A DNA stretch of 64,000 nucleotides, from assembly GCF_001746835.1 (NCBI RefSeq), contig NZ_CP016094.1:4107501-4171500 (forward strand). Reading direction: 5' to 3'. The notes below the pieces were generated by a model. That model was not told the DNA's origin and ran no database searches. It was given only the letters and a program-made list of their open reading frames with translations. Positions 5,941 to 38,652 of this stretch are shown here, in pieces; position 1 is the stretch's first letter, and each line of letters opens with the position of its first letter. Both the position numbers and the translations under genes were made by a program. The stretch is from Lacunisphaera limnophila. GTDB taxonomy: Bacteria > Verrucomicrobiota > Verrucomicrobiia > Opitutales > Opitutaceae.

Positions 5941-6972
5941 TCAGGTGGCAGGACTTGGCGATTTATTTTCTTTGGCCCGGAGCTTGAGGACGCGCTTTAG
6001 CAATTCTTTCCGGAGCTTGGGCAGACCGGCCTCGGAAAGGCAGGAAATCGGCACCAATTCCACCTTCGGATAGCGTTTTTTGAATTTCTTCAGGTTCACG
6101 ACGGCGGCCTCCTCGTCCATCTTGTTGGCCGCGACGAGGCGGGGCTTTTTCAGGAGGGATTTGTCGTAGAGTTCGAGTTCCTTGAGCAGCTGCTTGTAGT
6201 CGTCTCGCGGGTCGCGGGTGTCGGTGCCGGCGAGGTCGATGATGATCAGGAGCAGCTTGCAGCGCTCAATGTGGCGCAGAAAACGGTGGCCGAGGCCCTT
6301 GCCGTCGCTGGCGCCGGCGATGAGGCCGGGGATGTCGGCGAGGACGAGGCGCTCGTACTCCGCGGGGTACTCAATCACGCCGATTTGCGGGTGCAGGGTC
6401 GTGAACGGGTACGGCGCGGTCTTCGGGCGGGCCTTGGTGATGAGATTGGTGAGCGACGATTTGCCCGCGTTGGGAAAACCGACCAGGCCGATGTCGGCAA
6501 TGCTCTTCAGTTCCAGCCGGAACTCCCCGATCTCGCCGGGCAGGCCCGGGCCGGTCTTGGTCGGCGCGCGGTTGGTGGAGGATTTGAACTTGGTGTTGCC
6601 CATGCCGCCCTTGCCGCCCTTGAGCAGGACGAGGATCTGGCCGTCCTCCAGCACCTCGCCGATGACCTCACCGGTCTCCCGGTGGTAGGCGATGGTGCCG
6701 AGCGGCACGCGCAGGACGGCCGGACGGCCCTCCCGGCCGGTGCAATCCCCGCCCTGGCCGTGCTCGCCGCGCTCGCCGTTCCAGTGGGGCTTGTACTTGA
6801 AATCAATGAGGTTGTTCTGGTCCGTGTCCCCCTGGAGGACGACATCGCCGCCCTTGCCGCCGTCGCCGCCGTTGGGACCGCCCCAGGGCTCGTATTTTTC
6901 CCGGCGGAAGCTGCGGCAGCCGCGGCCACCGTCGCCGGCGCGGCATTTGATCGTGGTTTCGTCGATGAACAT
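5941..6972 (-). CDS. obg: GTPase Obg/CgtA
   Basis: This 343-residue essential GTPase is involved in 50S ribosome assembly and stress responses. The glycine-rich Obg fold fills residues 1-158 (repeated GGDGG, GERGE and GQGGD segments). The G domain follows, with G1 GFPNAGKSS at 165-173, G3 DIPG at 213-216 and G4 NKMD at 283-286. The C-terminus is short and basic, lacking the acidic tail seen in E. coli. It lies between ftsZ and the secretion gene pair, as a separate small block downstream of the dcw cluster. Confidence 0.97.
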   Translation of the reverse strand: MFIDETTIKCRAGDGGRGCRSFRREKYEPWGGPNGGDGGKGGDVVLQGDTDQNNLIDFKYKPHWNGERGEHGQGGDCTGREGRPAVLRVPLGTIAYHRETGEVIGEVLEDGQILVLLKGGKGGMGNTKFKSSTNRAPTKTGPGLPGEIGEFRLELKSIADIGLVGFPNAGKSSLTNLITKARPKTAPYPFTTLHPQIGVIEYPAEYERLVLADIPGLIAGASDGKGLGHRFLRHIERCKLLLIIIDLAGTDTRDPRDDYKQLLKELELYDKSLLKKPRLVAANKMDEEAAVVNLKKFKKRYPKVELVPISCLSEAGLPKLRKELLKRVLKLRAKENKSPSPAT

Positions 6973-7013
6973 GGGGTTAGGACGTCCGGTTGGCGCCGGT
7001 TGTCAAAGCTTCC

Positions 7014-8291
7014 TCAGAGCGCCACTTTGATGCCCTTGCGGAGGTAGGTGGGCACGTCGAGGTCCTGGCCCTCGAAGAGGTTGCGGTCGGACTTGCCGAA
7101 GGCGCCGCGGTTTTCGGCCGGTTCGCCCCCTTGGAAACCGAATTCCTCCTGCTGGGGCTTGGGCTTGGTGGCCGCGGGGGCGACACCGGCAGCCTCGGGG
7201 GCGGCGGGAGCCCGGGACCGGGGGGTGGCGGGATCGGCGGCGGCCGCCGGGGCGACGGGTTTCTCCACCCGGCGCACGGGCGCGGGGGCCGGCCGGCGGA
7301 CAAAATTGCGCCCCCCGACATCGGTGGTGCCGAGCACGCAGAGCTCGACGCGACCCTGCAGGGCCTCGTCGATGGCGGCGCCCATCACGACATGTGCCTC
7401 GGGGCCGAACTGCTCGGTCACGGCGGACATGATCTCGTTGACCTTGGTGAGGCTGAGGTCGGCGCCGCCGGTGATGTTCACGAGGAGGCGGTCGGCCTTG
7501 CGGGCGTGCTCCGGGGTGTGGAGCAGCGGGCAGTTCTTGAGATCATCCAGCGCGGCCTGCGCCGGATTGTCCCCGGTACCGGTGCCCAGACCGAAGAGGG
7601 TCTTGCCCCCGCGGTGGTGGAAAACCTGCCGGACGGCGGTGAAGTCCACGTTGATCAGGCCGGTGCGCGAGAGCATGGCCCAGATGGACTTCACGCCGCG
7701 GCCGATCCACTCGTCGGCGCGGGCGAAGGAGTCGAGGACGCTGGTCTGCTCGGTGCCTTCCTGCAGGAGCATGTCGTTGGAAAGCGGGATGACCGCGTCG
7801 CACACGCGGCGCAATTCGGCCAGGGCCTCCTCGGCCTGGCGGGCGCGGCGGCCGCCCTCGAAGCTGAACGGCAGGGTGACAAACGCGATGACGACCGCCC
7901 CCGCCTCGGCGGCAATCTGGGCCACGATGGGGGTGGCGCCCGAGCCGGTGCCGCCGCCCAGGCCGGCGACGAGGAAGACCAGGTCGGTGTCCTTGACGAT
8001 CTCGGCGATCTTGTCGGCGTCGGCCTCGGCGGCCTTGCAGCCGAGCTCCGGGTCGCCGCCGGCGCTCAGGCCTCGGGTGAGCCCGGCGCCAATCAGGATC
8101 TTGTCCTGCACCGGCGAGGTGCCGAGGGCCTTGAGGTCGGTGTTGATGACCGCCAGCTGGAGGCGGTCGAGGTTTTCCATCTTGAGGCGGTCGACGGCGT
8201 TGGAGCCGCCGCCGCCCACGCCGATGAGCTTGATGCCGACATCGCGGTCGGCCATGGCCTCGAGAGGCAGTTCGGAAGAGGGCTGGTCCAT
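7014..8291 (-). CDS. ftsZ: Cell division protein FtsZ
   Basis: This 425-residue tubulin homologue forms the cytokinetic Z-ring. The N-terminal GVGGGGSNAV and the tubulin signature GGGTGSG (112-118) bind GTP, and the T7-region NVDFTAV is visible. A Pro/Ala-rich linker (about residues 330-385) leads to a conserved C-terminal peptide, LDVPTYLRKGIKV, the expected tether for FtsA. The ATG at 8291 starts two bases after the ftsA stop codon. An upstream extension of this frame into ftsA is only a shadow. It is the last gene of the dcw cluster. Confidence 0.98.
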   Translation of the reverse strand: MDQPSSELPLEAMADRDVGIKLIGVGGGGSNAVDRLKMENLDRLQLAVINTDLKALGTSPVQDKILIGAGLTRGLSAGGDPELGCKAAEADADKIAEIVKDTDLVFLVAGLGGGTGSGATPIVAQIAAEAGAVVIAFVTLPFSFEGGRRARQAEEALAELRRVCDAVIPLSNDMLLQEGTEQTSVLDSFARADEWIGRGVKSIWAMLSRTGLINVDFTAVRQVFHHRGGKTLFGLGTGTGDNPAQAALDDLKNCPLLHTPEHARKADRLLVNITGGADLSLTKVNEIMSAVTEQFGPEAHVVMGAAIDEALQGRVELCVLGTTDVGGRNFVRRPAPAPVRRVEKPVAPAAAADPATPRSRAPAAPEAAGVAPAATKPKPQQEEFGFQGGEPAENRGAFGKSDRNLFEGQDLDVPTYLRKGIKVAL

Positions 8292-8293
8292 GG

Positions 8294-9511
8294 TCAGGAA
8301 GAGGCGAAGATGCGCGTGAGATTGCTCAGCAGGCCGGGTTTGCGCCGGGCGGGCAGCGTGTGCTCGTGCGCGGTGCGCAGGCCGAACTGGAAGATGCCGA
8401 GAACGGTGCTGAACATCGGGTCCTTGAGCTCGTCCTTCACCCAGGCGGGCGCCTCGCCGCGGCGGGCGTTGAGGCCGAAGACGCGGGTGGCGGCCTCCTC
8501 GATGCCGGGCATGCGGGCGGTGCCGCCCGTGAGGATCACGCCGGCGCCGCAATGCTCGGCCACAAAGGCCGGGCCGAGTTTCTGCCGCACCACCTCGAGC
8601 AGCTCGAGGGTGCGGGCGGAAGTAATGGTCTCGATGCCGAGCTTGGGCACCTGGCGGTCCCCGAAGGCGCCGTCGCCGTCGAGCCAGACCTTGTCCGCCT
8701 TGTCCCGGGTCTGCACCGTGCCGCGGCCGTGGCGGAGCTTGAGCATTTCCGCCTGGGCGAGGGTCACGCGCAGGCCGATGCTGAGGTCGTTGGTGAGGTG
8801 GTCGCCGGCGACCGGGAGGGTGCCGGTGACGAGCACATGGCCGTCGCGGTAGAGGACGTAGTCGGTGACACCCTTGCCGAGATCGATCACGAGGGCGCCC
8901 TGGGAGCGTTCCTCCGGGGTGGTCAGGAGGGAGCCGGCGGCGAGGCTGGCGAGCACGAGTTCGCGCACCTCGAGGTGGTAGCCGCCGACGACGTGGATGT
9001 TGTCGCTCACCTTGCTTTCGCCCCCGTGGACGATCCAGTAACCGACCTCGAGCCGGCGGCCGGTCAGGTGCTCGGGATTCGGCACGGCGCGGCCGTCGAG
9101 GCGGAAGGGGCGGCGGATCTCGTGGATGCGGGAGCGGCCGGCGGGCAGCTCCTTTTCCTTGGCGAGGGCGCAAACCGACTCGATGTCGAGGGCGTTGACG
9201 GTGTTGTCGGCGGACTTCACGTTGACCGAGGCCTCGTTGTAGAAGGCGTCGAGGTGGCCGCCGCTCTGGGCGAGCCAGACCTCCTCGATCCGGGCGCCGG
9301 CGCGCTGCTCGGCCATCTCGAGGGCCTGGTGGGTCGCCTCGCAGGCGGCCTTGTAGTCGACCACCTCGCCCTTCATGACGCCGCGAGCCGGGGCCACGCC
9401 GACGCCGATGATATTGAGGCTGCGCCCGCGGGCGATCTCGCCCACGAGGACCACGACCTTGCCGGTGCCGATTTCGACGGCGCCGATGATGCGACTGCTG
9501 TTAGAGATCAC
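8294..9511 (-). CDS. ftsA: Cell division protein FtsA
   Basis: This 405-residue actin-like ATPase tethers FtsZ to the membrane. Visible parts are phosphate-1 (GAVEIGTGKVVVLVGE), the SHS2-like 1C subdomain (residues about 85-165), phosphate-2 (VIDLGKGVTDYVLYRDG) and the adenosine motif (VILTGGTARMPGIEEAA). The C-terminal helix (LLSNLTRIFASS) is amphipathic and probably membrane-binding. I chose the GTG at 9511, which overlaps the last codons and stop of ftsQ. The frame continues upstream into ftsQ but without FtsA-like sequence. It sits between ftsQ and ftsZ, as in most bacteria. Confidence 0.95.
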   Translation of the reverse strand: MISNSSRIIGAVEIGTGKVVVLVGEIARGRSLNIIGVGVAPARGVMKGEVVDYKAACEATHQALEMAEQRAGARIEEVWLAQSGGHLDAFYNEASVNVKSADNTVNALDIESVCALAKEKELPAGRSRIHEIRRPFRLDGRAVPNPEHLTGRRLEVGYWIVHGGESKVSDNIHVVGGYHLEVRELVLASLAAGSLLTTPEERSQGALVIDLGKGVTDYVLYRDGHVLVTGTLPVAGDHLTNDLSIGLRVTLAQAEMLKLRHGRGTVQTRDKADKVWLDGDGAFGDRQVPKLGIETITSARTLELLEVVRQKLGPAFVAEHCGAGVILTGGTARMPGIEEAATRVFGLNARRGEAPAWVKDELKDPMFSTVLGIFQFGLRTAHEHTLPARRKPGLLSNLTRIFASS

Positions 9512-27817: not shown

Positions 27818-28438
27818 TCATCCGGCGCGCACGCTCATCGTCTGCCACATCACTCTGTCAAAGGTCCATCTGTTCAGGAGAAGCAGATCGGCCGCAAACT
27901 CGAGAATCCGACGCGCTTCAAGATAGCCATGCGCGCCCACCCCGGCGAGTCGCAGTAGCTCCTGTGCATGCCGATCTACTGCAATCGCCGAGATACCCAG
28001 CAATCGGCAAAGGTAGTCGACCGTCTTGTAGCCAACACCGCGCACGGTGAGCAACGCCACCCGATTTCTGGAGGCAGACACCCAGCCACGCAATTCACTC
28101 AGAGTATCGACGCCCTGCAGCCGCAGGAAGCCGACAAGTTGCCGCAAGCGCTTGGGCTTCTCCGGATGTGACCAGGCCAACGCAGCTGCGAATTTTGGAG
28201 TGCGCATAGCCTGCTTAAACTCGACGAGTGAGGCAACCTCAGGGAAGGCGTTGGTCACTGCAATTACCCGTGGTAAGACGACCGTGCGGTAGTTGAGCCC
28301 CGCCTGGAAGATAGTATCGACCAAGATCGCGGCAATGTTCCACGAGGCCGGGGTGGGCTGGATTCTCGCTACCGCGCCTATAGTCCAATTGGCAGCGACG
28401 TAGTCCGCAACAAGCCGGGCTTTGACCAGGGTTTCCAT
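27818..28438 (-). CDS. HhH-GPD family DNA glycosylase-like protein
   Basis: This 206-residue helical protein is related to endonuclease III/OGG-type glycosylases, which flip and excise modified bases from DNA. The helix-hairpin-helix reads LLTVRGVGYKTVDYLCRLLG (about 129-148). Lys138 (GVGYK) and Asp155 (AIAVDRH) sit at the positions of the catalytic Lys and Asp of bifunctional glycosylase/lyases. There is no C-terminal cysteine cluster for an iron-sulphur centre. The ATG at 28438 comes one base after the QueC-like stop (TGATATG), preferred over a longer start inside that gene. It is the last gene of a four-gene operon. HhH-GPD/OGG-like and QueC-like genes also occur together in type IV CBASS. 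Confidence 0.82.
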   Translation of the reverse strand: METLVKARLVADYVAANWTIGAVARIQPTPASWNIAAILVDTIFQAGLNYRTVVLPRVIAVTNAFPEVASLVEFKQAMRTPKFAAALAWSHPEKPKRLRQLVGFLRLQGVDTLSELRGWVSASRNRVALLTVRGVGYKTVDYLCRLLGISAIAVDRHAQELLRLAGVGAHGYLEARRILEFAADLLLLNRWTFDRVMWQTMSVRAG

Positions 28439-28439
28439 A

Positions 28440-29063
28440 TCAGCCGCCCAGCGCAGCGAGTCCTTGCAGTCGGTCAACACAATTGGGGCAGGCCCCGCAT
28501 GGCACCCTGCTATTCACTTGGCACGAAAACGTTTCGCCAATCGGCGCGCCCAAACGGATGCCGATACGGGCAACCTGTGCCTTCGACTTGTAGCGGAAGG
28601 GCATCTTCACCCGAACTCCGCCGAAACTCTTCAGCAGCTCTGATAGTCTTCCGAAAAATCGGGCTGAGCAGTCGATTTCTTCCGCATGGTTGGAGTTAAT
28701 GAAAGCAGTATAGACCGTGCCTCCCCCCGCCGACTGGACGCGGGCTGCTGCGATACTCAGAAGCAAGATGTTCCGGTAAGGAAGATAGAGATCCTCCTTC
28801 GTGATACTCTCTTCCCAGAGATTGGTTTCCCGGATCAGGCGCGACTGGGAGCCGGCGTAGATCGCGGCCACGTCCACGATTTCAAGTTTCCTCAGGATGC
28901 GTTTGGGTAGAACCTGACGGAGCGTGTTCAGCTCCGTCGTCGCGCAATGCTGCCCATAGTTGACGAACAATGGGTAGAATTGGACGCGCTTGGCCATCAT
29001 CCAATAGGCCAAGGTGGTCGAATCGAGGCCTCCTGAAGCGAGGAGAACGGATACTTTTCTCAT
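28440..29063 (-). CDS. QueC-like 7-cyano-7-deazaguanine synthase family protein
   Basis: This 207-residue PP-loop ATPase is related to QueC, which makes preQ0. The PP-loop SGGLDSTT is at 10-17, followed by FVNYGQH. The LPYRNILLLSIAAA segment matches the QueC GRNILFLTLAA region. Zinc ligands Cys181, Cys189, Cys192 and Cys195 are complete (CGACPNC). It stands apart from any queuosine operon, and queD, queE, queF and tgt are absent nearby. It is joined by ATGA overlap to a kinase-deoxyribosyltransferase gene and followed by a glycosylase gene. QueC-like proteins also serve immunity in Qat (QatC) and type IV CBASS. A defence role is inferred from context. Confidence 0.88.
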   Translation of the reverse strand: MRKVSVLLASGGLDSTTLAYWMMAKRVQFYPLFVNYGQHCATTELNTLRQVLPKRILRKLEIVDVAAIYAGSQSRLIRETNLWEESITKEDLYLPYRNILLLSIAAARVQSAGGGTVYTAFINSNHAEEIDCSARFFGRLSELLKSFGGVRVKMPFRYKSKAQVARIGIRLGAPIGETFSCQVNSRVPCGACPNCVDRLQGLAALGG

Positions 29064-30388
29064 GTGTGTGCCGTGAGACGGGCAACCTCATCGAACGTGG
29101 CCGTGATTATGGCGTCCAGCGAGTCGGTCACCAGACTAACTCCCTGGGTGAGCATGATGTTTTTAGCCCGGCCGTCTGGGTCATACACGAACACCTTCAT
29201 GCCGCGTTCGAGGGCAATGCCGATTTCGATTAGGGTGCCAGGGTCATCGAATATGAGGACTGCAATCATCATTTTGCACTTCCCGATAAGCGCCATGTCC
29301 GCTTCGTAGAGCTTCTGCCGCTCAGCCGGTGACATGTCGCCGTGCGCCTGGCCATGCTCCTTCACCGGCCGGCGCGGACGGAAGTTGTGATACTTGAGAC
29401 ATGACACCACCGCTTCGATATGCGTTGCATCCACGTAATCGAAATCCGGCGCTGCAATGTAGATGCTAGTCCCGCGCCGGCTCTCCCACGGCAGTCGAAC
29501 GGACGGCAACCCGACGATCTCCTCGCTGGAAAGCGCGAGTGTTCGCGAGACCGCCCGCTTAAAGTCCCTCGGATATGTGGTGGCAGCATACTCGCTCGCA
29601 ACCCACGACGCATAGCAGAGCGCGCCTTCTGCCCCTACCCTGGGTCGCAGCACGACAAACGCAGCATCGAAGGCATCACCAACGCCAACGGAATGGATGA
29701 TCGCGCGACGCTGGGAGCCAGTCGTGAAGTCCTCCCCTGTTGCGAGATAGCATCGCGACCCACCTCGATTTTCCTTAAGCACGACGCATTCAGCCCGTTG
29801 CCCAGCCAGCTTCGCTACGCTACCTGGCAGCCCGCGGCGAAACTTTGGAAACTCGGTGGCCGACGTGGAGAGAAACAGCGTCGATAGTGGGCGACCCAAC
29901 TTGCCCAGCGTGCCAAGCGTGGCTGGGCCGTTACCTAGGTCATAATGGACCTCTGCATCGGCGGCGCTCAGTATCCTGAGAATCTCTCCAAGATCAAAAT
30001 CCCCACCAATGATCAGCACTGAGGTCTCTCCAACCAAGAGCCGCCGCAGAGAGCTCGAATCGAGGGCATGCTCCACTTCATCTCTGAGTAAGTGTTCATA
30101 CCCTTGGGGACCGGCTTCTTTCGCCTCCCCAATCAGCATGACGTTGGGAGCACCAATCACGTTGCCGATTTTCACCACCCTTCGGGCGCCGTGCGCTCTC
30201 GTGTATTTGCTGACGGCTTTATCGAGATAGGTTGGGCAGAAATACGCTATATCGTAGCGCACCCCAATTGCCCACAACGCTCGAGCCGCGTGTATTACGC
30301 CGCCCATCCGGAGCTTTGCCTGTTCCGCTTTGGTCGGAAGCGTCACGTCCACGACCACTTCGCCGACTAGGACAATGCGCCGCGTCAT
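29060..30388 (-). CDS. PfkB-like kinase fused to nucleoside 2-deoxyribosyltransferase-like domain
   Basis: This 442-residue two-domain protein has an N-terminal ribokinase/PfkB fold (about 1-290). The substrate-side glycines RMGG are near 28-31, and the anion-hole/catalytic motif GVGDAFD is at 235-241, as in sugar and nucleoside kinases. The C-terminal domain (about 308-425) starts with IYIAAPDFDYVD. It includes CKMMIAVLIFDDPGTLIEIG with Glu388 at the position of the catalytic Glu of nucleoside deoxyribosyltransferases. Together the domains could move a base onto a sugar or remove it, and phosphorylate the product. ATGA overlaps join it to the genes on both sides. The exact substrates are unknown. 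Confidence 0.8.
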   Translation of the reverse strand: MTRRIVLVGEVVVDVTLPTKAEQAKLRMGGVIHAARALWAIGVRYDIAYFCPTYLDKAVSKYTRAHGARRVVKIGNVIGAPNVMLIGEAKEAGPQGYEHLLRDEVEHALDSSSLRRLLVGETSVLIIGGDFDLGEILRILSAADAEVHYDLGNGPATLGTLGKLGRPLSTLFLSTSATEFPKFRRGLPGSVAKLAGQRAECVVLKENRGGSRCYLATGEDFTTGSQRRAIIHSVGVGDAFDAAFVVLRPRVGAEGALCYASWVASEYAATTYPRDFKRAVSRTLALSSEEIVGLPSVRLPWESRRGTSIYIAAPDFDYVDATHIEAVVSCLKYHNFRPRRPVKEHGQAHGDMSPAERQKLYEADMALIGKCKMMIAVLIFDDPGTLIEIGIALERGMKVFVYDPDGRAKNIMLTQGVSLVTDSLDAIITATFDEVARLTAHT

Positions 30389-30774
30389 ACTGGAGCGCCA
30401 TCAATCGCAACCTTCGGAATCGGAGTCAGCGTGGACGCCCGAACCACGCCACGGTATTTCCATCCCGCTTTGATACATTGGGCCAATCCATTGTGCTTTG
30501 TCGGAAGGTTGCCGATGACTTCTCCCTTCGCACTCACGGCACACACTCGAGTGCGCAGTTCGATGAATACCGATACGCCTTTAGCAGGGACTCCGCCGTG
30601 GTTTTGGAAGTATGCAGATTGCCCGACATCTTCCAAGTCGGCTGAGAACGCTTGGTCGCAGGGGTCGCTACCACTTGATCCACCCGAGGCTCCCCCTCGG
30701 CCGCCACTTGACGGAAGCTGTTTCTTACGCGCGCGTGAATAGTCCGAGAACTTGGATGATCCTGCACTTCCCAT
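30385..30774 (-). CDS. Small Gly/Ser-rich Met-Gly-start protein, first gene of the QueC operon
   Basis: The protein has 129 residues. Residues 1-40 are flexible and Gly/Ser-rich (MGSAGSSKFSDYSRARKKQ, then GGRGGASGGSSGSDP). A compact beta-rich domain follows (VFIELRTRVCAVSAKGEVIG, NLPTKHNGLAQCIKAGWKY) that loosely resembles a HIRAN-like barrel. I chose the ATG at 30774 because the frame before it is not coding-like. Removal of Met would expose an N-terminal Gly. That is notable because QueC-like immune enzymes have, as I recall, been reported to modify N-terminal glycines of partner proteins. The stop overlaps the next start (ATGA). I do not recognise the family with certainty. Confidence 0.65.
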   Translation of the reverse strand: MGSAGSSKFSDYSRARKKQLPSSGGRGGASGGSSGSDPCDQAFSADLEDVGQSAYFQNHGGVPAKGVSVFIELRTRVCAVSAKGEVIGNLPTKHNGLAQCIKAGWKYRGVVRASTLTPIPKVAIDGAPV

Positions 30775-31115: not shown

Positions 31116-32075
31116 GTGAAACGCCACTTCAGCAGTCTTGATCGCTACACCATTGTCGAAGGCGACCTCGACGAGTCACAAGTCAATGGTATTGGCGGTG
31201 CCTTGTCGCCCGGCCTTTGGATCCCGTTGGCTCTAAATATCGCACACGGAGCCATGCAGGCCCAGGAAGGCATTCTATTCAAGAGACTGGTCGCCAAACT
31301 AGGCATGGCGCAGAGCCAGCCGTTTTCGTCAGCAAGGGCCGAACTAAATCGGCTGATCACGCCACAGTTTCACACGACGACTGAACGGGTATATCTTGAA
31401 TTTCCTCTCGACCATGCGCGCCTGACAGGGCTCGAGAAGGTCAGGTCTGGCAAGGACCTCAAATTCTTACTCGATGCAACGCTGGTTGCCGATCAGCTGC
31501 ATCTGTTGAACAATCACCAGGGGCCGATGGACCCGCACATCTGGGGCTTTCGGCAGCGCCACGTGCTTTATCTGCAGCAGGAAATCACGATTTCGAGAGA
31601 CGCATGGATCACACGCGTGCTACCACAGACTGGTTACGGCTCGGTGCATGTGCTCGAATTTCCCGCTATCCCTATAGAGAATACGGAAACCTTAAAACAC
31701 AGCTACGACGCCCTTGTTCAAGCGCAGGAACGGCATCGGCTTGGCATGTATGACGATTCAGTCGGCAAATGCCGTGTCGCACTGGAACCGTTTGTTACTC
31801 TGATTGAAGAAGACGACGGCAAGGGCGGAAAGAAGAAGGTTCCGAAGCTGAAGCCGTCCTGGCAAACGAAGCTGGGGCAGGCCACCTACCAGTGGCTCAA
31901 TGATTCCTTCAATGCCGTGAGATACGCCGGCAACCCAAACCATCACTCGCCGAATGCTCACTACGATCAACTGGAATCACAAATGATCTTGGCTGTCACC
32001 ACGGCATTGGTGTCTTACGCGTTGCGGACCCTGGGCGCTGAGGACGGTGCTGTTGGTCGGGACGGCAAGAAGTAG
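31116..32075 (+). CDS. Uncharacterised island protein (319 aa) with helical C-terminal domain
   Basis: I do not recognise a named family. The first 190 residues mix strands and helices (for example HARLTGLEKVRSGKDLKFLL, then DAWITRVLPQTGYGSVHVLE). The last 110 are helical, with a Lys/Asp-rich hinge (EEDDGKGGKKKVPK) and end in NPNHHSPNAHYDQLESQMIL plus a hydrophobic helix. The late Arg-Tyr-Ala-Gly-Asn-Pro and His-His cluster recalls HEPN/abortive-infection-type helical domains, but I cannot confirm the RxxxxH motif. It starts with GTG, and its stop overlaps the next gene start by one base. Confidence 0.7.
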   Translation: MKRHFSSLDRYTIVEGDLDESQVNGIGGALSPGLWIPLALNIAHGAMQAQEGILFKRLVAKLGMAQSQPFSSARAELNRLITPQFHTTTERVYLEFPLDHARLTGLEKVRSGKDLKFLLDATLVADQLHLLNNHQGPMDPHIWGFRQRHVLYLQQEITISRDAWITRVLPQTGYGSVHVLEFPAIPIENTETLKHSYDALVQAQERHRLGMYDDSVGKCRVALEPFVTLIEEDDGKGGKKKVPKLKPSWQTKLGQATYQWLNDSFNAVRYAGNPNHHSPNAHYDQLESQMILAVTTALVSYALRTLGAEDGAVGRDGKK

Positions 32076-32581
32076 TGAGGCGTCTGCCGATCGTGAAGAC
32101 GCCTGACAGCACAGATCCACATGTAGTTGCCTTCTGTGCGAGTATCAGTCCTAGCGCGCCATTCTACATTCCAATTCATCCGGACACGAATTGCGCGTGT
32201 GACGATTGCTTCAACAACATGGACCTCGTCAGCATGGTTCACGGGGGAGAAGTCGTTCCGGGTTGGAGCCTATTCGAGTGGCCCAGAGTATTTATCGAAG
32301 CAGAGCATCACCACACGTGGCGCAAAAAATCAGGCCAATATGAGGACCCGACACCACGCGAGGATCGGAAGCGCAGATTGCTCTTTCTACCCGATCTCGG
32401 CTTGAAGCCTGGCGAGTATCCTCCAAATAGGCGCCATTTTCTCACTGAGGATTCTACGGCCAAGGAATATGTCGCAGTTGTTGATCAACTAAAGAAAGGC
32501 GGCTCCTCAACCACGCTCATCGAGTCAATGCGTCAGCTCAGGAAGGCCTTAGAATTGAAATACGGGAAGGAGCCGATGTAG
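32075..32581 (+). CDS. Uncharacterised zinc-ribbon-like protein of the GWxxWEWP...IEAEHH type (168 aa)
   Basis: A cysteine cluster (NCACDDCFNN, about residues 40-49) precedes the segment GWSLFEWPRVFIEAEHHHTW (about 63-82). I recall similar GWxIWEWPxxxIEAEFHxxW stretches in uncharacterised bacterial proteins, some with SEC-C zinc motifs. The C-terminal half is charged and helical. The start is GTG overlapping the previous stop. It is followed after 11 bases by the ATG of the amber-interrupted TPR-like gene. Its role is unknown. Confidence 0.65.
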   Translation: MRRLPIVKTPDSTDPHVVAFCASISPSAPFYIPIHPDTNCACDDCFNNMDLVSMVHGGEVVPGWSLFEWPRVFIEAEHHHTWRKKSGQYEDPTPREDRKRRLLFLPDLGLKPGEYPPNRRHFLTEDSTAKEYVAVVDQLKKGGSSTTLIESMRQLRKALELKYGKEPM

Positions 32582-33118: not shown

Positions 33119-35269
33119 CTAACTGGCGGCCAGCCTGAGGGGCACCGGGTCAGAAAGGATTTCCCGCGTATGCACTTCCGGGCCTTCGCGTTGCCAGCCC
33201 ACCAGTTCAATCACGATGGTGCGGCCCGTCGTATCCGCAGGACGGAGTTTTCGGGCCAGCAGATTGGCGAAACGCTGGTCATGCGTGGAAACACATAGCT
33301 GCCGGCGGTCTTTCGTGCGTCGCAGCAAATCGACAAGGCCCAAGAGGTTGACATCGTCCAGACATTGAAGCGGGTCGTCCAACAGCAGGGACGCCAGCGG
33401 CGGTTGTGTGACCCCGAAGTTGAATGATAGAAAGATCGAAACAGCGAGCGCGTTCACTTGGGAACTCGACATGACCAGCGGCGGATGCTGGCACGACAGG
33501 TCTTCTTGCGAGTCCTGCACCACAGTGGACAGCAGCCCGCGACCCTTTGTAACGCGCGATAGAAACTTCACCGTCTCGAATGCCGGATGCGGGTCGATCC
33601 GGGAGTAAATGTTCTGCAACAGGGGTTCTACCTGTTGCAGTCGCTGCTCGACCACCGCGGAAGCGGCTTCGCGCAATCCTTCGATCACCCGCTGGGCCAT
33701 TTCGCCGGAGGCGTTCCGACTGGCGATCGCCTGTTGCCTCTCTTGGATTAGCTTTTGCAGGCGCTCGCTTTCGACCTTGGTCTCGCTCAATGCGAGCTGA
33801 GCCACCGATTGCGAAACCGCGAGAGCCAGAGCTTCGCCTTGATGCTGCAGCTCCTTGAGCCTCGCGGCATGGCTGTCGTTCTTGGAAATGCCTTCCTCGA
33901 GCTGCCGCGCGCGAACAGATGACTCCTCGGCCGAGATCCCATGTTCGACGAATCGCGCCTGCACGAACTTCCGAAGCATGTCGGCTTCCATCTCCCGTTG
34001 CTGCTCGGTGCGAATGGAGAGTTCCAGACCACCGATCTCCTTTTCCTTAGCTGCCACCAGCGCCAGTAGTTCGTTCAGTTTAGTGGATGAGGAGTCGGGC
34101 AACGGCTCCCCACCTTTCTGGGTTATGGCCGTCAGTCTTTGGTGGGTCTTCGCTCGGTCGATACTCTGGGCGCACACCGGGCAGTGGTCGCCGAGGTGCT
34201 CAAGGGCAAGCAATGCCAAAACCCGCAACTGCTCGTCTTTTTGCTTCAGCTCAGCCTGCATCCGCCTCATTTCTGCCTGTCTGTCCTGTTCCTGCGTGAC
34301 CGATTGGCGTAGCGTGCTTAGTTCGTTCGTGAGCGCGACTGACCTTGCCCGTAGTTCAGCAACGTCGCCCCGAGGCGGCAATGCCTCCAATTGGACAAGC
34401 TGCGGTTGCAGTAAGCGCAGAGACTGGCCGCTTCGTTCGGAAGCCACCCGTTTCATTTCGATTTCTTTAATCGCTGTGTCGATCGCGCGCCCGGCGTCCC
34501 GCGCCACCGGCTCGGGAGCCGTCCCGGTAATCCCCAGCGCGTTTAGTTCCGTCCACCATTTGCTCCATTCAGCCGGGTTGACCGGGGTAGCGACCGAGGG
34601 ATAGCGAGCGGTGAGTTCCCGAGCCCGCGCCAGCACATTGGCCAAGACAAGCCGGGTTTCCTCCAAATCACTGACACGTTGATTGGTGACGGTTGACCAC
34701 GCTTTTTTGGCCCGCTCCAACGCCCCTTGAAGTTCGGTAACACGACCGGCCCCAAACAATTCACTGACCGAGGTGAAGCGATCATGATCGTCCGCCGGCT
34801 CGATGAAATGGCGCAGGACATCCTGCTGTAAGTAAACACTGCGGGTCAGGACAGAAGCGAGTGCCGCCAGCGGCTCGGTCCCCGTTTGGGCCTCAGGCCA
34901 AACCAATTGCAGCAGCCGACCTTCGGCCGAAGGTCCAGAAAGTAGTCCCTCCGGGGTTTCAAGGGCCACCCGCGCTTCCCCTGTTTCCCGGTCGCAGCTG
35001 CGCGTCACTTTGAAGAGCCGGCCGGCTGCGTCGCAGAGCGTAAGCAGAGCGCGAGCCTGGCCGGATTCAGCGTAAAGCGAAACGACACTGGCGCCCTCGG
35101 CTGCCAGCCGAGGAATCCTCCCGCATAGCGCCCACAGAATACCGTCGAAGAGCGAAGTCTTACCATTCCCGTTCGCCCCCACCACAATGATGGCGTCAGC
35201 ATTCAGGTCGAAGGCCTGGGTTTTTGCAAACCCGCGGAAACCGGAAAGTTCTAGCCCGACGATCTTCAT
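33119..35269 (-). CDS. Rad50/SMC-like ATPase, putative ABC-three-component system ATPase
   Basis: The protein has about 716 residues. The N-terminal half-site begins MKIVGLELSGFRGF, with Walker A GANGNGKTS (31-39). Long coiled coils (about 180-350 and 370-560) flank a zinc-hook motif CPVC at 363-366. The C-terminal half has the signature-like SSQVNALAVSIFLS, Walker B LLLDDP (628-633) and the His-switch STHD. I chose the ATG at 35269, which overlaps the stop of the middle gene (ATGA). The preceding two genes encode a small uncharacterised protein and a SIR2-like protein. That layout fits the ABC-3C conflict systems, where the ATPase senses invasion and licenses the effector. Confidence 0.88.
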   Translation of the reverse strand: MKIVGLELSGFRGFAKTQAFDLNADAIIVVGANGNGKTSLFDGILWALCGRIPRLAAEGASVVSLYAESGQARALLTLCDAAGRLFKVTRSCDRETGEARVALETPEGLLSGPSAEGRLLQLVWPEAQTGTEPLAALASVLTRSVYLQQDVLRHFIEPADDHDRFTSVSELFGAGRVTELQGALERAKKAWSTVTNQRVSDLEETRLVLANVLARARELTARYPSVATPVNPAEWSKWWTELNALGITGTAPEPVARDAGRAIDTAIKEIEMKRVASERSGQSLRLLQPQLVQLEALPPRGDVAELRARSVALTNELSTLRQSVTQEQDRQAEMRRMQAELKQKDEQLRVLALLALEHLGDHCPVCAQSIDRAKTHQRLTAITQKGGEPLPDSSSTKLNELLALVAAKEKEIGGLELSIRTEQQREMEADMLRKFVQARFVEHGISAEESSVRARQLEEGISKNDSHAARLKELQHQGEALALAVSQSVAQLALSETKVESERLQKLIQERQQAIASRNASGEMAQRVIEGLREAASAVVEQRLQQVEPLLQNIYSRIDPHPAFETVKFLSRVTKGRGLLSTVVQDSQEDLSCQHPPLVMSSSQVNALAVSIFLSFNFGVTQPPLASLLLDDPLQCLDDVNLLGLVDLLRRTKDRRQLCVSTHDQRFANLLARKLRPADTTGRTIVIELVGWQREGPEVHTREILSDPVPLRLAAS

Positions 35270-35859
35270 TTCTTGGTCAAGGTTTCGTGCAGCTGATCCA
35301 TGATTGGAGCCTGCGTCTTGAAGGCTTTCAGGACGGCCTCGGTCGCGTTGCGGGGAACTTCTGAGCGAGCCAACAAGTCCGGTAGCAGATCGAGCACGGA
35401 TGCCGGCGCCGGCACCGAGACTCCCTCGTTTAGCGGCAATAGCGGTCGCAATACGCGCGCTGCCGCGCCCGGCAGCTTCAATTCCACGCCTGATGCCACC
35501 AGTTTCCGAATTCGGTTGGTGTCGTATCGGATATGTTCCAGTTGCGCAGACTCGGAAGGCGCGACGGCCGGGGTGAGTAAAACCAAATAGCCATCCCATG
35601 ATTTCGATTCAGTCTGTGCAACGTTCTGCGAGATGATTTCCACCAATGACCCTTGCAGGTCGGGCCAAGACTGCAGCAACTCAGTGCAGCTGTCGAAAAT
35701 GGCGACGCCAACTACGTTATATTTGTCCTCAAAGAGCCGCGCGTGCGACGTATCCCAGTCCGTGAAACGCCCTTCAATCCGTCGGTAGCCTCCAGCCATC
35801 AAGGTTTCAGAGGCCACCGCCATTAGTTCAGCGCTCGTGTTGTCGGGGGTATCGCTCAT
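35266..35859 (-). CDS. Putative ABC-three-component system middle component
   Basis: This 197-residue soluble alpha/beta protein begins MSDTPDNTSAELMAVASETL. It includes VVGVAIFDSCTELLQSWPDL and a run of strands and helices (SKSWDGYLVLLTPAVAP). The C-terminal half is helical. It lacks nucleotide-binding motifs. ATGA overlaps tie it to the SIR2-like gene before it and the Rad50-like gene after it. The call of middle component rests on operon position and size; sequence alone would only say hypothetical. Confidence 0.65.
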   Translation of the reverse strand: MSDTPDNTSAELMAVASETLMAGGYRRIEGRFTDWDTSHARLFEDKYNVVGVAIFDSCTELLQSWPDLQGSLVEIISQNVAQTESKSWDGYLVLLTPAVAPSESAQLEHIRYDTNRIRKLVASGVELKLPGAAARVLRPLLPLNEGVSVPAPASVLDLLPDLLARSEVPRNATEAVLKAFKTQAPIMDQLHETLTKK

Positions 35860-37250
35860 GGGACGATAGCAGCGACCAGGGCCGGGTTCGCGCGTAGAGT
35901 TTCGAGATGATGATAAGATAGGGAAGTCTGTCCGGTGATGATGTCGTTGGCGGGGCCTTCACCACGAACTAAGTCGGTGGGCGGCGTGATCGTCACGGGG
36001 CCGTCAGAGGTCGCGGCCACCAAGGTCGCCGTGGGCTGAATGCCACGCGTGCGCCACTGCGGCCGGCGCTGGTTGATTCGGGTTTCGATACTGGCAGTCT
36101 TCCGATGCCCACAGCCCGAAGCAACGATTACAGCAGAGATGACTTTTCCGCCACGCCGGAATTCGACCAAGCCGTCTTCTGCGACACTGACCTCGGTTGT
36201 CGAGTTGCGGGCGATATACGCAATGCCCAGCAGGAGATCAGCCTGCAACGGCGAGACGTTTCCGTCCATCGGCTGGTATGGACGTTTGTCGTTCAAGAGC
36301 CAATTTGCCCTAATCCTGCCAGCCGTGACAACCCCATGCCCGCGCAACTGTGCAAGGATTGGGGTCAGGTTCTCGTTGGTATGATTGTTCTCCAGAGCTT
36401 TTTCCTGGGCCGATGCAGCAAGCAGTTGGTGATGCTCAACTACGAGCCGGTCCGCTAGTTGCCGCATGAAATCGCACCAACCCATCTGGATGTAACGATC
36501 GTCGGCCAGTTGCATCTGTTGGAAAAATCCCGAACCCGCGCTTGGAGATGGATTCACCAGATACTGCCGCGTTGCGGCCGGAATCGCTTGCCGCATCAGC
36601 TTGGCGCTCTCCAGAAGCACGGTTACCGCGGTCCCGATTCCAGCGAATACCACCACCGGCCTGACGAGCACGTGCTGCGTAATTTGCTGTTCCCAATTTC
36701 CCTGCCACTCAGCCTGAATGGTCACGGTTCTCAGGACCCAGGCATTGGGATCGACTTCATTGGCGCTGCGATGAAGATAGTAAATGTTGTGGTTCGTTTG
36801 ATTGCCAAGGTGGTGGGGCCCTTCAATAATGCCAACAATGTCGCCACAGGACAACGCGGCCACCGCCGCCGTAATGGCGACATCGTAGTTCAAAGTGACG
36901 ATGGAGGCTATGGCACGTTCGGTTAACAGGGCCGCTGCGATGAGATAGCCCTCGTTGGGCATTTTCGCATGAAGCTGGTAGCGTTGCCGCAAACGAGTCA
37001 CCAAGGGTTCCTGCGTCCCTGCTTTCAGAAAAACCAGATCCGCCAACACCGAGAGATCGTCGGGCTTGGTGCATTCCCCTGCGGCAAGAAATCCGTCAGC
37101 GACAAAATCGTCATGAAGAGCCTGGGAGCATACCCGCGCGACCGGGACCCCGGTAGGTGCTTCGACTGAACAACCAGCGCCCAGAATAAGGGCCAAGCGT
37201 CCACCGCCAGGAGCCACAACGGCTTGGTTTAGTTCAACAGGAAGGGGCAT
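35856..37250 (-). CDS. SIR2-like domain protein, likely NAD-consuming defence effector
   Basis: This 464-residue protein has an N-terminal SIR2-like Rossmann domain. The nucleotide-binding start is LILGAGCSVEAPTGVPVA (about 21-38), TLNYD at 119-123 supplies the conserved Asn and Asp, and YYLHRS places a His at 160. These are the residues expected in SIR2-type NADases of bacterial defence systems. The C-terminal third has no recognised domain. It is the first gene of a three-gene coupled operon, the effector position of ABC-3C systems. NAD depletion upon infection would be the expected outcome; this is inference. Confidence 0.85.
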   Translation of the reverse strand: MPLPVELNQAVVAPGGGRLALILGAGCSVEAPTGVPVARVCSQALHDDFVADGFLAAGECTKPDDLSVLADLVFLKAGTQEPLVTRLRQRYQLHAKMPNEGYLIAAALLTERAIASIVTLNYDVAITAAVAALSCGDIVGIIEGPHHLGNQTNHNIYYLHRSANEVDPNAWVLRTVTIQAEWQGNWEQQITQHVLVRPVVVFAGIGTAVTVLLESAKLMRQAIPAATRQYLVNPSPSAGSGFFQQMQLADDRYIQMGWCDFMRQLADRLVVEHHQLLAASAQEKALENNHTNENLTPILAQLRGHGVVTAGRIRANWLLNDKRPYQPMDGNVSPLQADLLLGIAYIARNSTTEVSVAEDGLVEFRRGGKVISAVIVASGCGHRKTASIETRINQRRPQWRTRGIQPTATLVAATSDGPVTITPPTDLVRGEGPANDIITGQTSLSYHHLETLRANPALVAAIVP

Positions 37251-37605: not shown

Positions 37606-38652
37606 TCAGACCGGATACAGGTAGTCAAGGAGCGCCGACGGGCCCCGATTCATAAGTTTGTCCAACACATCGTATTCCTCCGTGGTGGCCAGGCGAAAGC
37701 CAAAGGCCCGGAATTCGCGAGCGGCTTCCTGCAGCCCCAGCTCACTCACGTTGGGGAAAGCCTCCTGCAATGTGCAAAAAAAGGCCGGGCATGGATTCTT
37801 CTTCCCGGCGTATCGCTCCGGTAGCTTGAGCTGAGAAATGTGCTTCGGGAAGTAACGATAGAGCCGGCTCAAAACATTGATTCCAGTCCGAGAATAGGTT
37901 TCATCCCGCCAGATAAGCCGGTCAATTTGCTCGACGGTGAAGCGATCTCCAAAGATTTCGGCCAACCGGAACAGTAGTTCGACGATCTTGTTGCCCTTGG
38001 GTGTGCCCCAAATCTCCAAGCCCATGGCGACAGCCCGGTCGATCACAGCCCCGATTGGAAAAGGATCGGGCAAGGGTCCGACTTCCACCAAGAGATCCGT
38101 CAGGGTGGTCAGCATCTTCGCGTTATCCTGCCGGGATGCGGCGCGGACGGTATCCGAGAGACTCAAAACCAGTTGTTCATGGGTTTCGCCGCGCGCCATT
38201 TGCTGTAGTTCGCCCGTCAGCCCGCGACGAAAATCGTGCGCTGACGGGATCCATACGGTAATGGATTCGGGAAGATCCTGAAAGCGGACGCCTTCCTGCC
38301 GCTGCGAAAGCCACCAACGTTGAACCCAGAGATACCAGGCGCGCTCCTTACTGCGGTCCATCCAGACCAGGACTAGCGGAATACGAAGATTTTCACCGAT
38401 GTGAACGAGGTCCTTGGGAAGTTGGCAGGCCACCCGGCCCTGCTTTTGAGTGGCAGTTGTGGTGGATTTGACCTGCAGCTTGATGAGTTCTCCGGCGACC
38501 GCTGGAATCGCTAACTCGAGTTCAATATCCATCCCAAAATCATGCTGCACCTGGTGGCGCACTATCCAGTTTTCGGACGCCTCAGCCACCCAAACAGCCG
38601 AAGCCTCGGCTTTTGCACCAACGGCTTGTTGCTGACTTCTCGTCTTAGCCAT
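37606..38652 (-). CDS. DUF4365-type nuclease-like protein
   Basis: The first 160 residues of this 348-residue protein match the DUF4365 pattern. GAKAEASAVWVAEASENWIV is followed by HDFGMDIELE (about 38-47) and LIKLQVKST (about 57-65), the D...E/QxK arrangement of restriction-endonuclease-like folds. A Trp-rich segment (WYLWVQRWW) follows. The C-terminal 180 residues are helical and unassigned. DUF4365 proteins are common in defence islands. It has its own upstream region and is not overlapped with the SIR2 operon. Confidence 0.75.
   Translation of the reverse strand: MAKTRSQQQAVGAKAEASAVWVAEASENWIVRHQVQHDFGMDIELELAIPAVAGELIKLQVKSTTTATQKQGRVACQLPKDLVHIGENLRIPLVLVWMDRSKERAWYLWVQRWWLSQRQEGVRFQDLPESITVWIPSAHDFRRGLTGELQQMARGETHEQLVLSLSDTVRAASRQDNAKMLTTLTDLLVEVGPLPDPFPIGAVIDRAVAMGLEIWGTPKGNKIVELLFRLAEIFGDRFTVEQIDRLIWRDETYSRTGINVLSRLYRYFPKHISQLKLPERYAGKKNPCPAFFCTLQEAFPNVSELGLQEAAREFRAFGFRLATTEEYDVLDKLMNRGPSALLDYLYPV

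What the first reader, a model, noticed from the sequence alone, without database searches (positions are those of the whole stretch)
27818..30774. Four-gene QueC / PfkB-NDT / HhH-GPD / Met-Gly-protein operon: candidate undescribed nucleobase-based defence system
Seen: four minus-strand genes joined by ATGA or one-base junctions, in a lower-GC island next to a SIR2/Rad50-like system. They encode a Gly/Ser-rich Met-Gly protein, a PfkB kinase fused to a deoxyribosyltransferase-like domain, a complete QueC-like enzyme (PP-loop and four Cys) and a HhH-GPD glycosylase with catalytic Lys and Asp. Known: QueC-like genes serve immunity in Qat, and QueC-, TGT- and OGG-like genes accompany type IV CBASS. 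Here there is no CD-NTase, no QatA or QatD and no TGT. The set therefore matches neither named system and may use a modified base in a new way.
Basis: partly seen in the sequence, partly recalled or inferred. Interest (0 to 1): 0.92.

Follow-up and report, generated by a model that had tools for sequence, protein, structure and literature searches.

The report
QueC operon tagging a HIRAN protein
A four-gene operon found across several bacterial phyla, often beside anti-phage genes or inside prophages, appears to attach a guanine-like base to the front end of a small DNA-binding-type protein; it is probably an undescribed relative of known phage-defence chemistry, but no activity has been shown.

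Summary
Four intact minus-strand genes (27818-30774) form a conserved operon. Scans seeded only on its QueC gave 80 genome loci (the best 80 of 107 relatives) and 16 viral-contig loci. With the window and three plasmid loci added and near-copies removed, 78 loci remain, 69 with complete flanks: the Met-Gly gene is in 68, PfkB-NDT in 68, HhH in 66. In all 70 loci with four separate genes (window not counted) order and strand are the same.

The Met-Gly protein begins Met-Gly in 75 of 75 loci and MGS in 74. It has a variable disordered tail and a confidently modelled domain with the HIRAN fold. This is the anatomy of the N-terminally modified substrates of Cap9 (type IV CBASS) and, as proposed, QatC. 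The QueC is a separate clade: the base-reading Asp is kept and the stacking Tyr is Glu in 78 of 78.

Sister plasmid operons pair other QueC clades with Gly- or Ser-tailed HIRAN-like or TIR proteins. One 2026 paper reports a QueC/PfkB-NDT pairing and calls it purine salvage. I think this is a third QueC-based protein-modification system, probably defensive. Chemistry, trigger and defence are untested.

The parts
30385..30774 (-). Met-Gly protein: conserved N-terminal tail (consensus MGSxGSGxFSDY), disordered Gly/Ser linker, C-terminal HIRAN-fold domain; proposed substrate of the QueC
   Evidence: blocks of residues 1-30 at mean pLDDT 45-52, residues from about 41 at 94-98; HIRAN HLTF 4xzg Z 9.4, 3k2y Z 11.5
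29060..30388 (-). PfkB-type kinase domain fused to a nucleoside 2-deoxyribosyltransferase domain (PF05014); conserved GVGD and DxGTxxE
   Evidence: PfkB half weak by sequence
28440..29063 (-). QueC-family enzyme, group A clade: SGGxDS loop, Cys4 zinc motif, Glu in place of the stacking Tyr, invariant Asp
27818..28438 (-). HhH-GPD fold glycosylase-like protein with Lys (K138) and Asp (D155) at the catalytic positions

Best explanation
A third kind of QueC-based protein-modification system, most likely anti-phage. (1) Methionine is removed from the Met-Gly protein, exposing Gly2 (inferred from the general rule). (2) The QueC uses ATP to activate the carboxyl group of a guanine-like base, 7-carboxy-7-deazaguanine or a close analogue, and joins it to the Gly2 amine, as Cap9 does to a CD-NTase (inferred by homology and tail anatomy). 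(3) The PfkB-NDT protein adds a deoxyribose to that base and may phosphorylate it, or makes or removes the small-molecule form (inferred; candidate catalytic residues are conserved). (4) The HhH protein reads or cuts the base-sugar bond, taking the place that TGT- and OGG-like proteins hold in type IV CBASS (inferred). (5) The HIRAN domain places the modified tail at DNA ends made during phage attack (inferred from the HIRAN of HLTF). Shown here: gene content, order, breadth, the invariant N-terminus, the domain folds by prediction, active-site residues, and the mobile/defence setting. Not shown: any activity.
For: Operon: 68/69, 68/69 and 66/69 non-redundant complete loci carry the Met-Gly, PfkB-NDT and HhH genes; leaving out the window and the three plasmid loci, which were not found through QueC, it is 64/65, 64/65 and 62/65 for loci seeded on QueC alone. 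Order and strand 70/70. N-terminus: Gly2 75/75, MGS 74/75, Tyr12 75/75, against Gly2 in 4 of 115 control ORFs and not among the six commonest position-2 residues of the other three operon proteins; positions 2-12 are better conserved (mean majority 0.80) than the linker (0.36) or the folded domain (0.53). Tail disordered, domain confident, HIRAN fold. QueC: ATP loop, Cys4 and the Asp that in Cap9 reads the base edge are kept. Modularity: the 14 group B plasmid operons carry tailed proteins beginning MSG (11), MSS (1) or MGGG (2), and the profile of the 12 Ser-tailed ones is related to the window's (hhalign probability 96.2%, E 2.3e-9); in group C a TIR protein beside QueC begins MGGG in the 2 loci opened. 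Setting: the 139 nearest flank ORFs match 247 PADLOC families at 1e-10, dGTPase leading with 9 ORFs, against 10 families for 115 control ORFs; 16 viral-contig loci; of eight flank ORFs tested from four loci in phage-like settings, four match head, tail-terminator or tape-measure families.
Against: No experiment. The stacking Tyr that holds deazaguanine in Cap9 is Glu here, so the base may differ. In group B residue 2 is Ser in 12 of 14, so a glycine acceptor is not the rule in the sister operons. Ten of 23 host genomes have no other strong QueC-family match, and 3 of 23 have no PTPS (QueD-family) match; those 3 show no clear QueE with two models, so CDG may be unavailable there. HhH was not found in the three fused Bacillaceae loci or in 4 of 14 group B loci, so it is not essential everywhere. 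The control ORFs come from the window's own genome, one of its genus and four of its family, not from matched hosts; 'families matched' counts redundant models, not genes; one model named among the flank matches, mad2, also matches 2 control ORFs. HIRAN rests on a predicted model; DNA-binding residues were not tested. The invariant Cys39 and Cys100 of the Met-Gly protein are unexplained.
Confidence: 0.6

Rival explanations
1. A purine or deazapurine salvage pathway: NDT and PfkB make a deoxynucleotide from a salvaged base, QueC modifies a small-molecule base, HhH cleaves a nucleoside. The Met-Gly protein is a regulator.
For: This is how Libby et al. 2026 read the QueC/PfkB-NDT pair (PMC13329287). 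NDT plus kinase is a textbook salvage pair (recalled). The HhH model also aligns with the human queuine-salvage enzyme DUF2419 (7ugk, Z 11.7, 203 residues), one of many similar HhH rows. Ten of 23 hosts have no other strong QueC match.
Against: Does not explain an invariant MGS terminus on a HIRAN-fold protein, the tail on TIR proteins, or the plasmid, prophage and defence setting.
Confidence: 0.15
2. A toxin-antitoxin or abortive module in which the modified HIRAN or TIR protein is the toxin and PfkB-NDT/HhH remove the modification.
For: Group C tailed proteins carry a TIR domain (annotation; tail). HhH is a plausible eraser of a base-sugar bond; dGTPase neighbours suggest nucleotide depletion.
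Against: HIRAN is a binding domain with no toxicity known to me. All four genes sit in one tightly coupled operon in 70 of 70 loci with four separate genes.
Confidence: 0.15
3. A DNA-modification or base-exchange system: QueC makes a modified base that NDT/HhH place into DNA, HIRAN guiding it to ends.
For: NDT, HhH and (in type IV CBASS) TGT-family enzymes act on or bind at base-sugar bonds; HLTF HIRAN has been solved bound to DNA (titles of 4s0n, 4xzf, 5bnh).
Against: No TGT-type family is among the 25 commonest Pfam families of the flank ORFs (capped list); a small-molecule route does not need an invariant protein N-terminus.
Confidence: 0.1

Closest known systems
Type IV CBASS (Cap9/Cap10, with OGG-like partner)
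   Same: QueC-family enzyme beside a protein with a Met-Gly-type disordered N-terminus (MGGS of the CD-NTase, PMC13279940); OGG-type partner (from recall and the finding, no call). Cap9 is among the three solved sequences matched by the Cupriavidus QueC.
   Different: No CD-NTase and no TGT found; the tailed protein is HIRAN; PfkB-NDT present; QueC in another clade with Glu for Tyr (the Cap9 row there is named by its PADLOC model match only).
qatABCD (QatB/QatC)
   Same: Tailed partner with essential N-terminal MGTS motif beside a QueC-like enzyme (PMC13279940, parts 1-3).
   Different: QatC is about 400 aa with Thr/Thr in place of Tyr/Asp; here 207 aa with Glu/Asp. QatB is all-helical; no QatA or QatD here.
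PF06508 'Cluster 4' of Libby et al. 2026
   Same: QueC next to a PF00294-PF05014 fusion (PMC13329287). The Roseivivax QueC of my group B carries its CH(x)5CxxCxGCxK motif.
   Different: The window clade has C(x)7CxxCxxC and Glu at the stacking position (group B: His). The paper's main text has no hit for HhH, OGG, glycosylase or kinase; it notes frequent helix-turn-helix neighbours; the parts I read mention no tailed substrate, and it reads the pair as purine salvage.
HIRAN-domain proteins (HLTF, Rad5, HamB of Hachiman)
   Same: Fold of the C-terminal domain (HamB at Z 6.8 only suggestive).
   Different: Here the HIRAN stands alone behind a conserved MGS tail, without a helicase.

Membership tests
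Type IV CBASS | CD-NTase gene in the operon | tested here: not met
   None of the four operon proteins or six island ORFs matched a CD-NTase model; the table for 33119-35599 was capped at 25 of 59 families
Type IV CBASS | TGT-like Cap10 | tested here: not met
   No such match among the same ten window proteins
Type IV CBASS | QueC-family enzyme with Tyr and Asp for the base | tested here: not met
   Glu at the Tyr position in 78/78, Asp kept 78/78; the Cap9-model row has Tyr/Asp
qatABCD | QatA (KAP ATPase) and QatD (TatD) genes | tested here: not met
   No match among the ten window proteins scanned
qatABCD | Extended QatC (about 400 aa) with invariant Thr/Thr | tested here: not met
   207 aa; Glu/Asp; QatC features from PMC13279940 and PMC13329287
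Canonical QueC (preQ0 synthase) | YPDC motif | tested here: not met
   EIDC in the window; group A (26 rows) is one clade apart from 14 canonical-type rows, 100/99 support
Canonical QueC (preQ0 synthase) | queD/queE neighbourhood | tested here: not met
   No PTPS or radical-SAM match in the window ORFs scanned; for other loci only a capped list was seen
PF06508 Cluster 4 (Libby 2026) | CH(x)5CxxCxGCxK motif | tested here: not met
   Window CQ(x)6CxxCxxCVDR; Roseivivax group B shows the motif
PF06508 Cluster 4 (Libby 2026) | Neighbouring PfkB-NDT fusion | tested here: met
   68/69
QueC-type N-terminal base conjugation | Base-modified glycine N-terminus on the partner | not testable with these tools
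   Tail anatomy fits; chemistry needs mass spectrometry
HIRAN domain | HIRAN fold | tested here: met
   The 16 best Foldseek rows are HLTF HIRAN or 3k2y (best E 2.3e-3, none under 1e-3); VIA Z 11.5 and 9.4 over 87 and 82 residues; predicted model only
HIRAN domain | Binding of DNA 3' ends | not tested
   Residues not mapped
HhH-GPD glycosylases | HhH fold with catalytic Lys and Asp | tested here: met
   K138 and D155 invariant in 38 of 38; MagIII Z 16.0 over 191 residues, Tm Ogg 14.8 over 178; that these positions are catalytic is recalled
Nucleoside 2-deoxyribosyltransferase (PF05014) | Domain with DxGTxxE | tested here: met
   E 5.3e-14; D382 and E388 77/77; that these are the catalytic pair is recalled
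PfkB kinase (PF00294) | PfkB profile match | tested here: inconclusive
   No PF00294 match at E<=1; weak kinase matches; GVGD Asp 76/77

The most novel reading that the evidence does not exclude
The operon builds a nucleotide on a protein. QueC attaches a guanine-like base to Gly2, the NDT half moves a deoxyribose onto that base (from deoxyguanosine that neighbouring dGTPases could supply), the PfkB half adds the 5' phosphate, and the HhH enzyme joins or cuts it at DNA. HIRAN would then hold a protein-borne nucleotide at DNA ends, a protein-DNA link not known in immunity to my knowledge. In hosts without their own CDG pathway the base could come from the phage and be the trigger.
Probability: 0.15. 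Interest if true: 0.96.

Novelty: new variant of a known kind. Interest (0 to 1): 0.84.

Why it matters
QueC-made protein-base conjugates were reported in one immune system and proposed in a second. This adds a widespread third, with a small substrate that looks like a DNA-end binder, an invariant modification site and a four-gene set that can be expressed and assayed. The sister operons suggest a general rule: different QueC clades, each with its own residue beside the invariant Asp, tag glycine- or serine-tailed partners (CD-NTase, QatB, HIRAN, TIR). That rule gives a way to find more such systems and to ask what the tag is for, which is open even in Qat. It also questions the purine-salvage reading of PF06508 Cluster 4.

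Tried and rejected
Canonical queuosine cluster: rejected (two stronger QueC copies lie elsewhere in the genome; clade apart). Type IV CBASS and Qat membership: rejected on gene content and active site. Single-genome accident: rejected. Phage records of INPHARED: no match to the fusion. IMG/VR scan with the window fusion alone: none of 7 pattern matches confirmed. Phylum search with the window fusion: 4 of 387 genomes (own plus three weak matches). PDB sequence search with the Met-Gly profile gave only weak matches, spidroins first (E 0.29), superseded by the fold search. Empty-site search: mraZ matches in 12 of 12 genomes (own included), but the right-hand flank gene has no close copy in the congeners, so no insertion boundary is claimed. 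Exceptions to the operon: L079 carries QueC and HhH behind a dGTPase fragment that ends like the fusion's tail (my reading), counted as a miss; L093, L102 and L103 have the fusion joined to QueC and no HhH found. No HhH gene found in the fetched group B loci L014, L020, L022 and L025 (4 of 14). Paper searches for prior description: (all 10 used; open-licence PMC only, no bioRxiv). Apart from the papers cited, none listed appears to describe this set; some searches returned mostly unrelated papers, and of the large result sets only the listed rows were seen.
Full report
What is there. Four minus-strand genes at 27818-30774 are intact and tightly packed. From the upstream end they encode a 129-aa protein starting MGSAGSSKFSDY, a 442-aa PfkB-like/deoxyribosyltransferase fusion, a 207-aa QueC-family protein and a 206-aa HhH protein whose likely ATG is at 28438. 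They lie in a 12-kb lower-GC stretch between mraZ/mraW and an oxidoreductase gene, next to a Lamassu-like ATPase gene. The host genome carries two other, stronger QueC matches elsewhere.

It is a conserved unit. Plasmid records gave near full-length relatives of the fusion in Neotabrizicola, Cupriavidus and two Proteus records; each of the three records opened carries the same four genes. I then seeded scans only on the QueC alignment: 107 genome-contig relatives, of which the best 80 were kept, and 16 viral-contig loci. Profiles of all four proteins on these loci plus the window and three plasmid loci (100 QueC loci; 78 after dropping those at least 95% identical to a kept row; 69 with complete flanks) found the Met-Gly gene in 68, the fusion in 68 and HhH in 66. 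Without the window and the three plasmid loci, which QueC did not find, the counts are 64, 64 and 62 of 65. Order and strand are the same in 70 of 70 loci with four separate genes, the window not counted; the median gap is -4 nt at all three junctions. By record titles and the tree labels the hosts include Pseudomonadota, Bacteroidota and Bacillota, and Acidobacteriota and TM6 assemblies. In three Bacillaceae the fusion is further joined to QueC and HhH was not found; L079 looks like a broken locus. This is a pattern-seeded sample, so it measures linkage, not abundance.

The Met-Gly protein looks like a modification substrate. Gly2 is present in 75 of 75, MGS in 74 and Tyr12 in 75. Mean majority-residue conservation is 0.80 for residues 2-12, 0.36 for the linker and 0.53 for the domain; the stretch between Tyr12 and the invariant Cys39 varies from 8 to 29 residues. 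Start codons were chosen nearest the profile start, which favours but does not create the motif. Gly2 occurs in 4 of 115 control ORFs. AlphaFold2 with 60 rows gives the first 30 residues low confidence (block means 45-52) and models residues from about 41 on at 94-98. The best fold matches are HIRAN domains and 3k2y: Foldseek E 2.3e-3 with probability 1.00 (none under 1e-3; the 16 best rows are all of these two kinds, the next row is E 0.29); VIA Z 11.5 for 3k2y (rmsd 2.0, 87 aligned), 9.4 for HLTF (rmsd 1.8, 82 aligned), 8.1 for Rad5 and 6.8 for HamB of Hachiman. Z under 8 may be only a common arrangement, so HamB is suggestive.

The QueC is its own clade. The ATP loop and zinc cysteines are kept; the Asp that in Cap9 reads the base edge (PMC13279940) is present in 78 of 78, while the stacking Tyr is Glu in 78 of 78. 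In a 57-row tree group A (26 rows) is one clade (100/99); the residue at the stacking place is Tyr in 14 canonical-type rows and in one row chosen by the PADLOC QueC model (its neighbours were not checked), Glu in group A, His in 14 group B rows and Phe in 2 group C rows, with Asp in all. Deeper joins in that tree are weak and the Cap9-type row is long, so I draw nothing from them.

Sister operons. Group B (14 plasmid loci) has QueC and a PfkB-NDT protein behind a small tailed protein that begins MSG in 11, MSS in 1 and MGGG in the two haloarchaeal loci; in Roseivivax it is missing from the PLSDB gene table. The profile of the 12 Ser-tailed proteins is related to the window's. Residue 2 is thus Ser in 12 of 14, so the acceptor may differ there. 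An HhH/OGG gene is near in 10 of 14: by annotation in L012, L013, L015, L019 and L021, by Pfam in L016-L018, by a weak profile match in L027 and by my reading of an ORF in L026. Group C (2 loci opened) has the fusion, a TIR gene, HhH, QueC and then a TIR protein beginning MGGG. Similar tails on unrelated domains beside QueC support modification of the tail. The Roseivivax group B QueC shows the published Cluster 4 motif.

The other two proteins. The NDT half has D382 and E388 in 77 of 77 and the kinase half a GVGD Asp in 76 of 77. The HhH model (pLDDT 92.7) is closest to MagIII (Z 16.0, 191 aligned) and Ogg enzymes, with Lys and Asp invariant in 38 of 38; human queuine-salvage DUF2419 is in the same list (Z 11.7).

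Setting. The nearest flank ORFs (139; at most one per side, 130-1100 aa, within 5 kb) match 247 PADLOC families at 1e-10, dGTPase in 9 ORFs; type I methylase and Septu models also appear among the 25 rows shown, and mad2 in 2. The 115 control ORFs match 10 families, mad2 in 2. Families are redundant and hosts are not matched. dGTPase is also the top recurrent neighbour by clustering (9 loci) and is annotated close to or in two group B operons. Of eight flank ORFs tested against PHROGs, a major head protein (L070), tail terminators (L057, L117) and a tape measure (L057) were named; three matched families of unknown function and one matched none.

A puzzle. Ten of 23 hosts tested have no strong QueC-family match besides the operon's. 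Several are draft assemblies, but L101 is titled a complete genome. Either the base is salvaged, or it comes from the invader, or it is not CDG.

Verdict. Best reading: a third QueC-based N-terminal modification system, probably defensive, using a HIRAN substrate with PfkB-NDT and HhH enzymes to process the base. The parts and their linkage are shown; the reaction, the order of steps and protection are inferred. Papers: PMC13329287 read in parts 1-3 of 5 and searched by word; PMC13279940 in parts 1-3 of 6 and searched by word; PMC11996544 abstract only; others seen only in search listings.

Noticed in passing
L054, L067, L101 (host genomes G394, G397, G406): Hosts with the operon but no PTPS/QueD match, no clear QueE and no other strong QueC match, so the source of a 7-deazaguanine base is unexplained.
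   Followed up: partly
L023:9890-10357 and L024:9928-10401: TIR-domain proteins with an MGGG tail directly after a QueC gene: a candidate QueC-tagged TIR effector.
   Followed up: partly
L020:4916-6004 and L025:5369-6004: Haloarchaeal tailed proteins that by eye carry two copies of the HIRAN-like domain.
   Followed up: no
L093, L102, L103 (about 6651-8630): Bacillaceae single ORF joining PfkB-NDT to QueC, with no HhH gene found.
   Followed up: partly
L031, L041, L042, L047, L049, L054, L079, L084, L092: dGTPase-type genes recur next to the operon, in both orientations; also near group B operons in L021 and L022.
   Followed up: partly
window 33119-37250: Lamassu-like LmuB gene with a weakly SIR2-like partner, and a DUF4365 gene (37606-38652), in the same low-GC island.
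   Followed up: no
window 31116-32581: Two plus-strand ORFs between the operon and the Lamassu-like genes with no Pfam or PADLOC match and at most a weak NCBIfam match (E 0.023).
   Followed up: no
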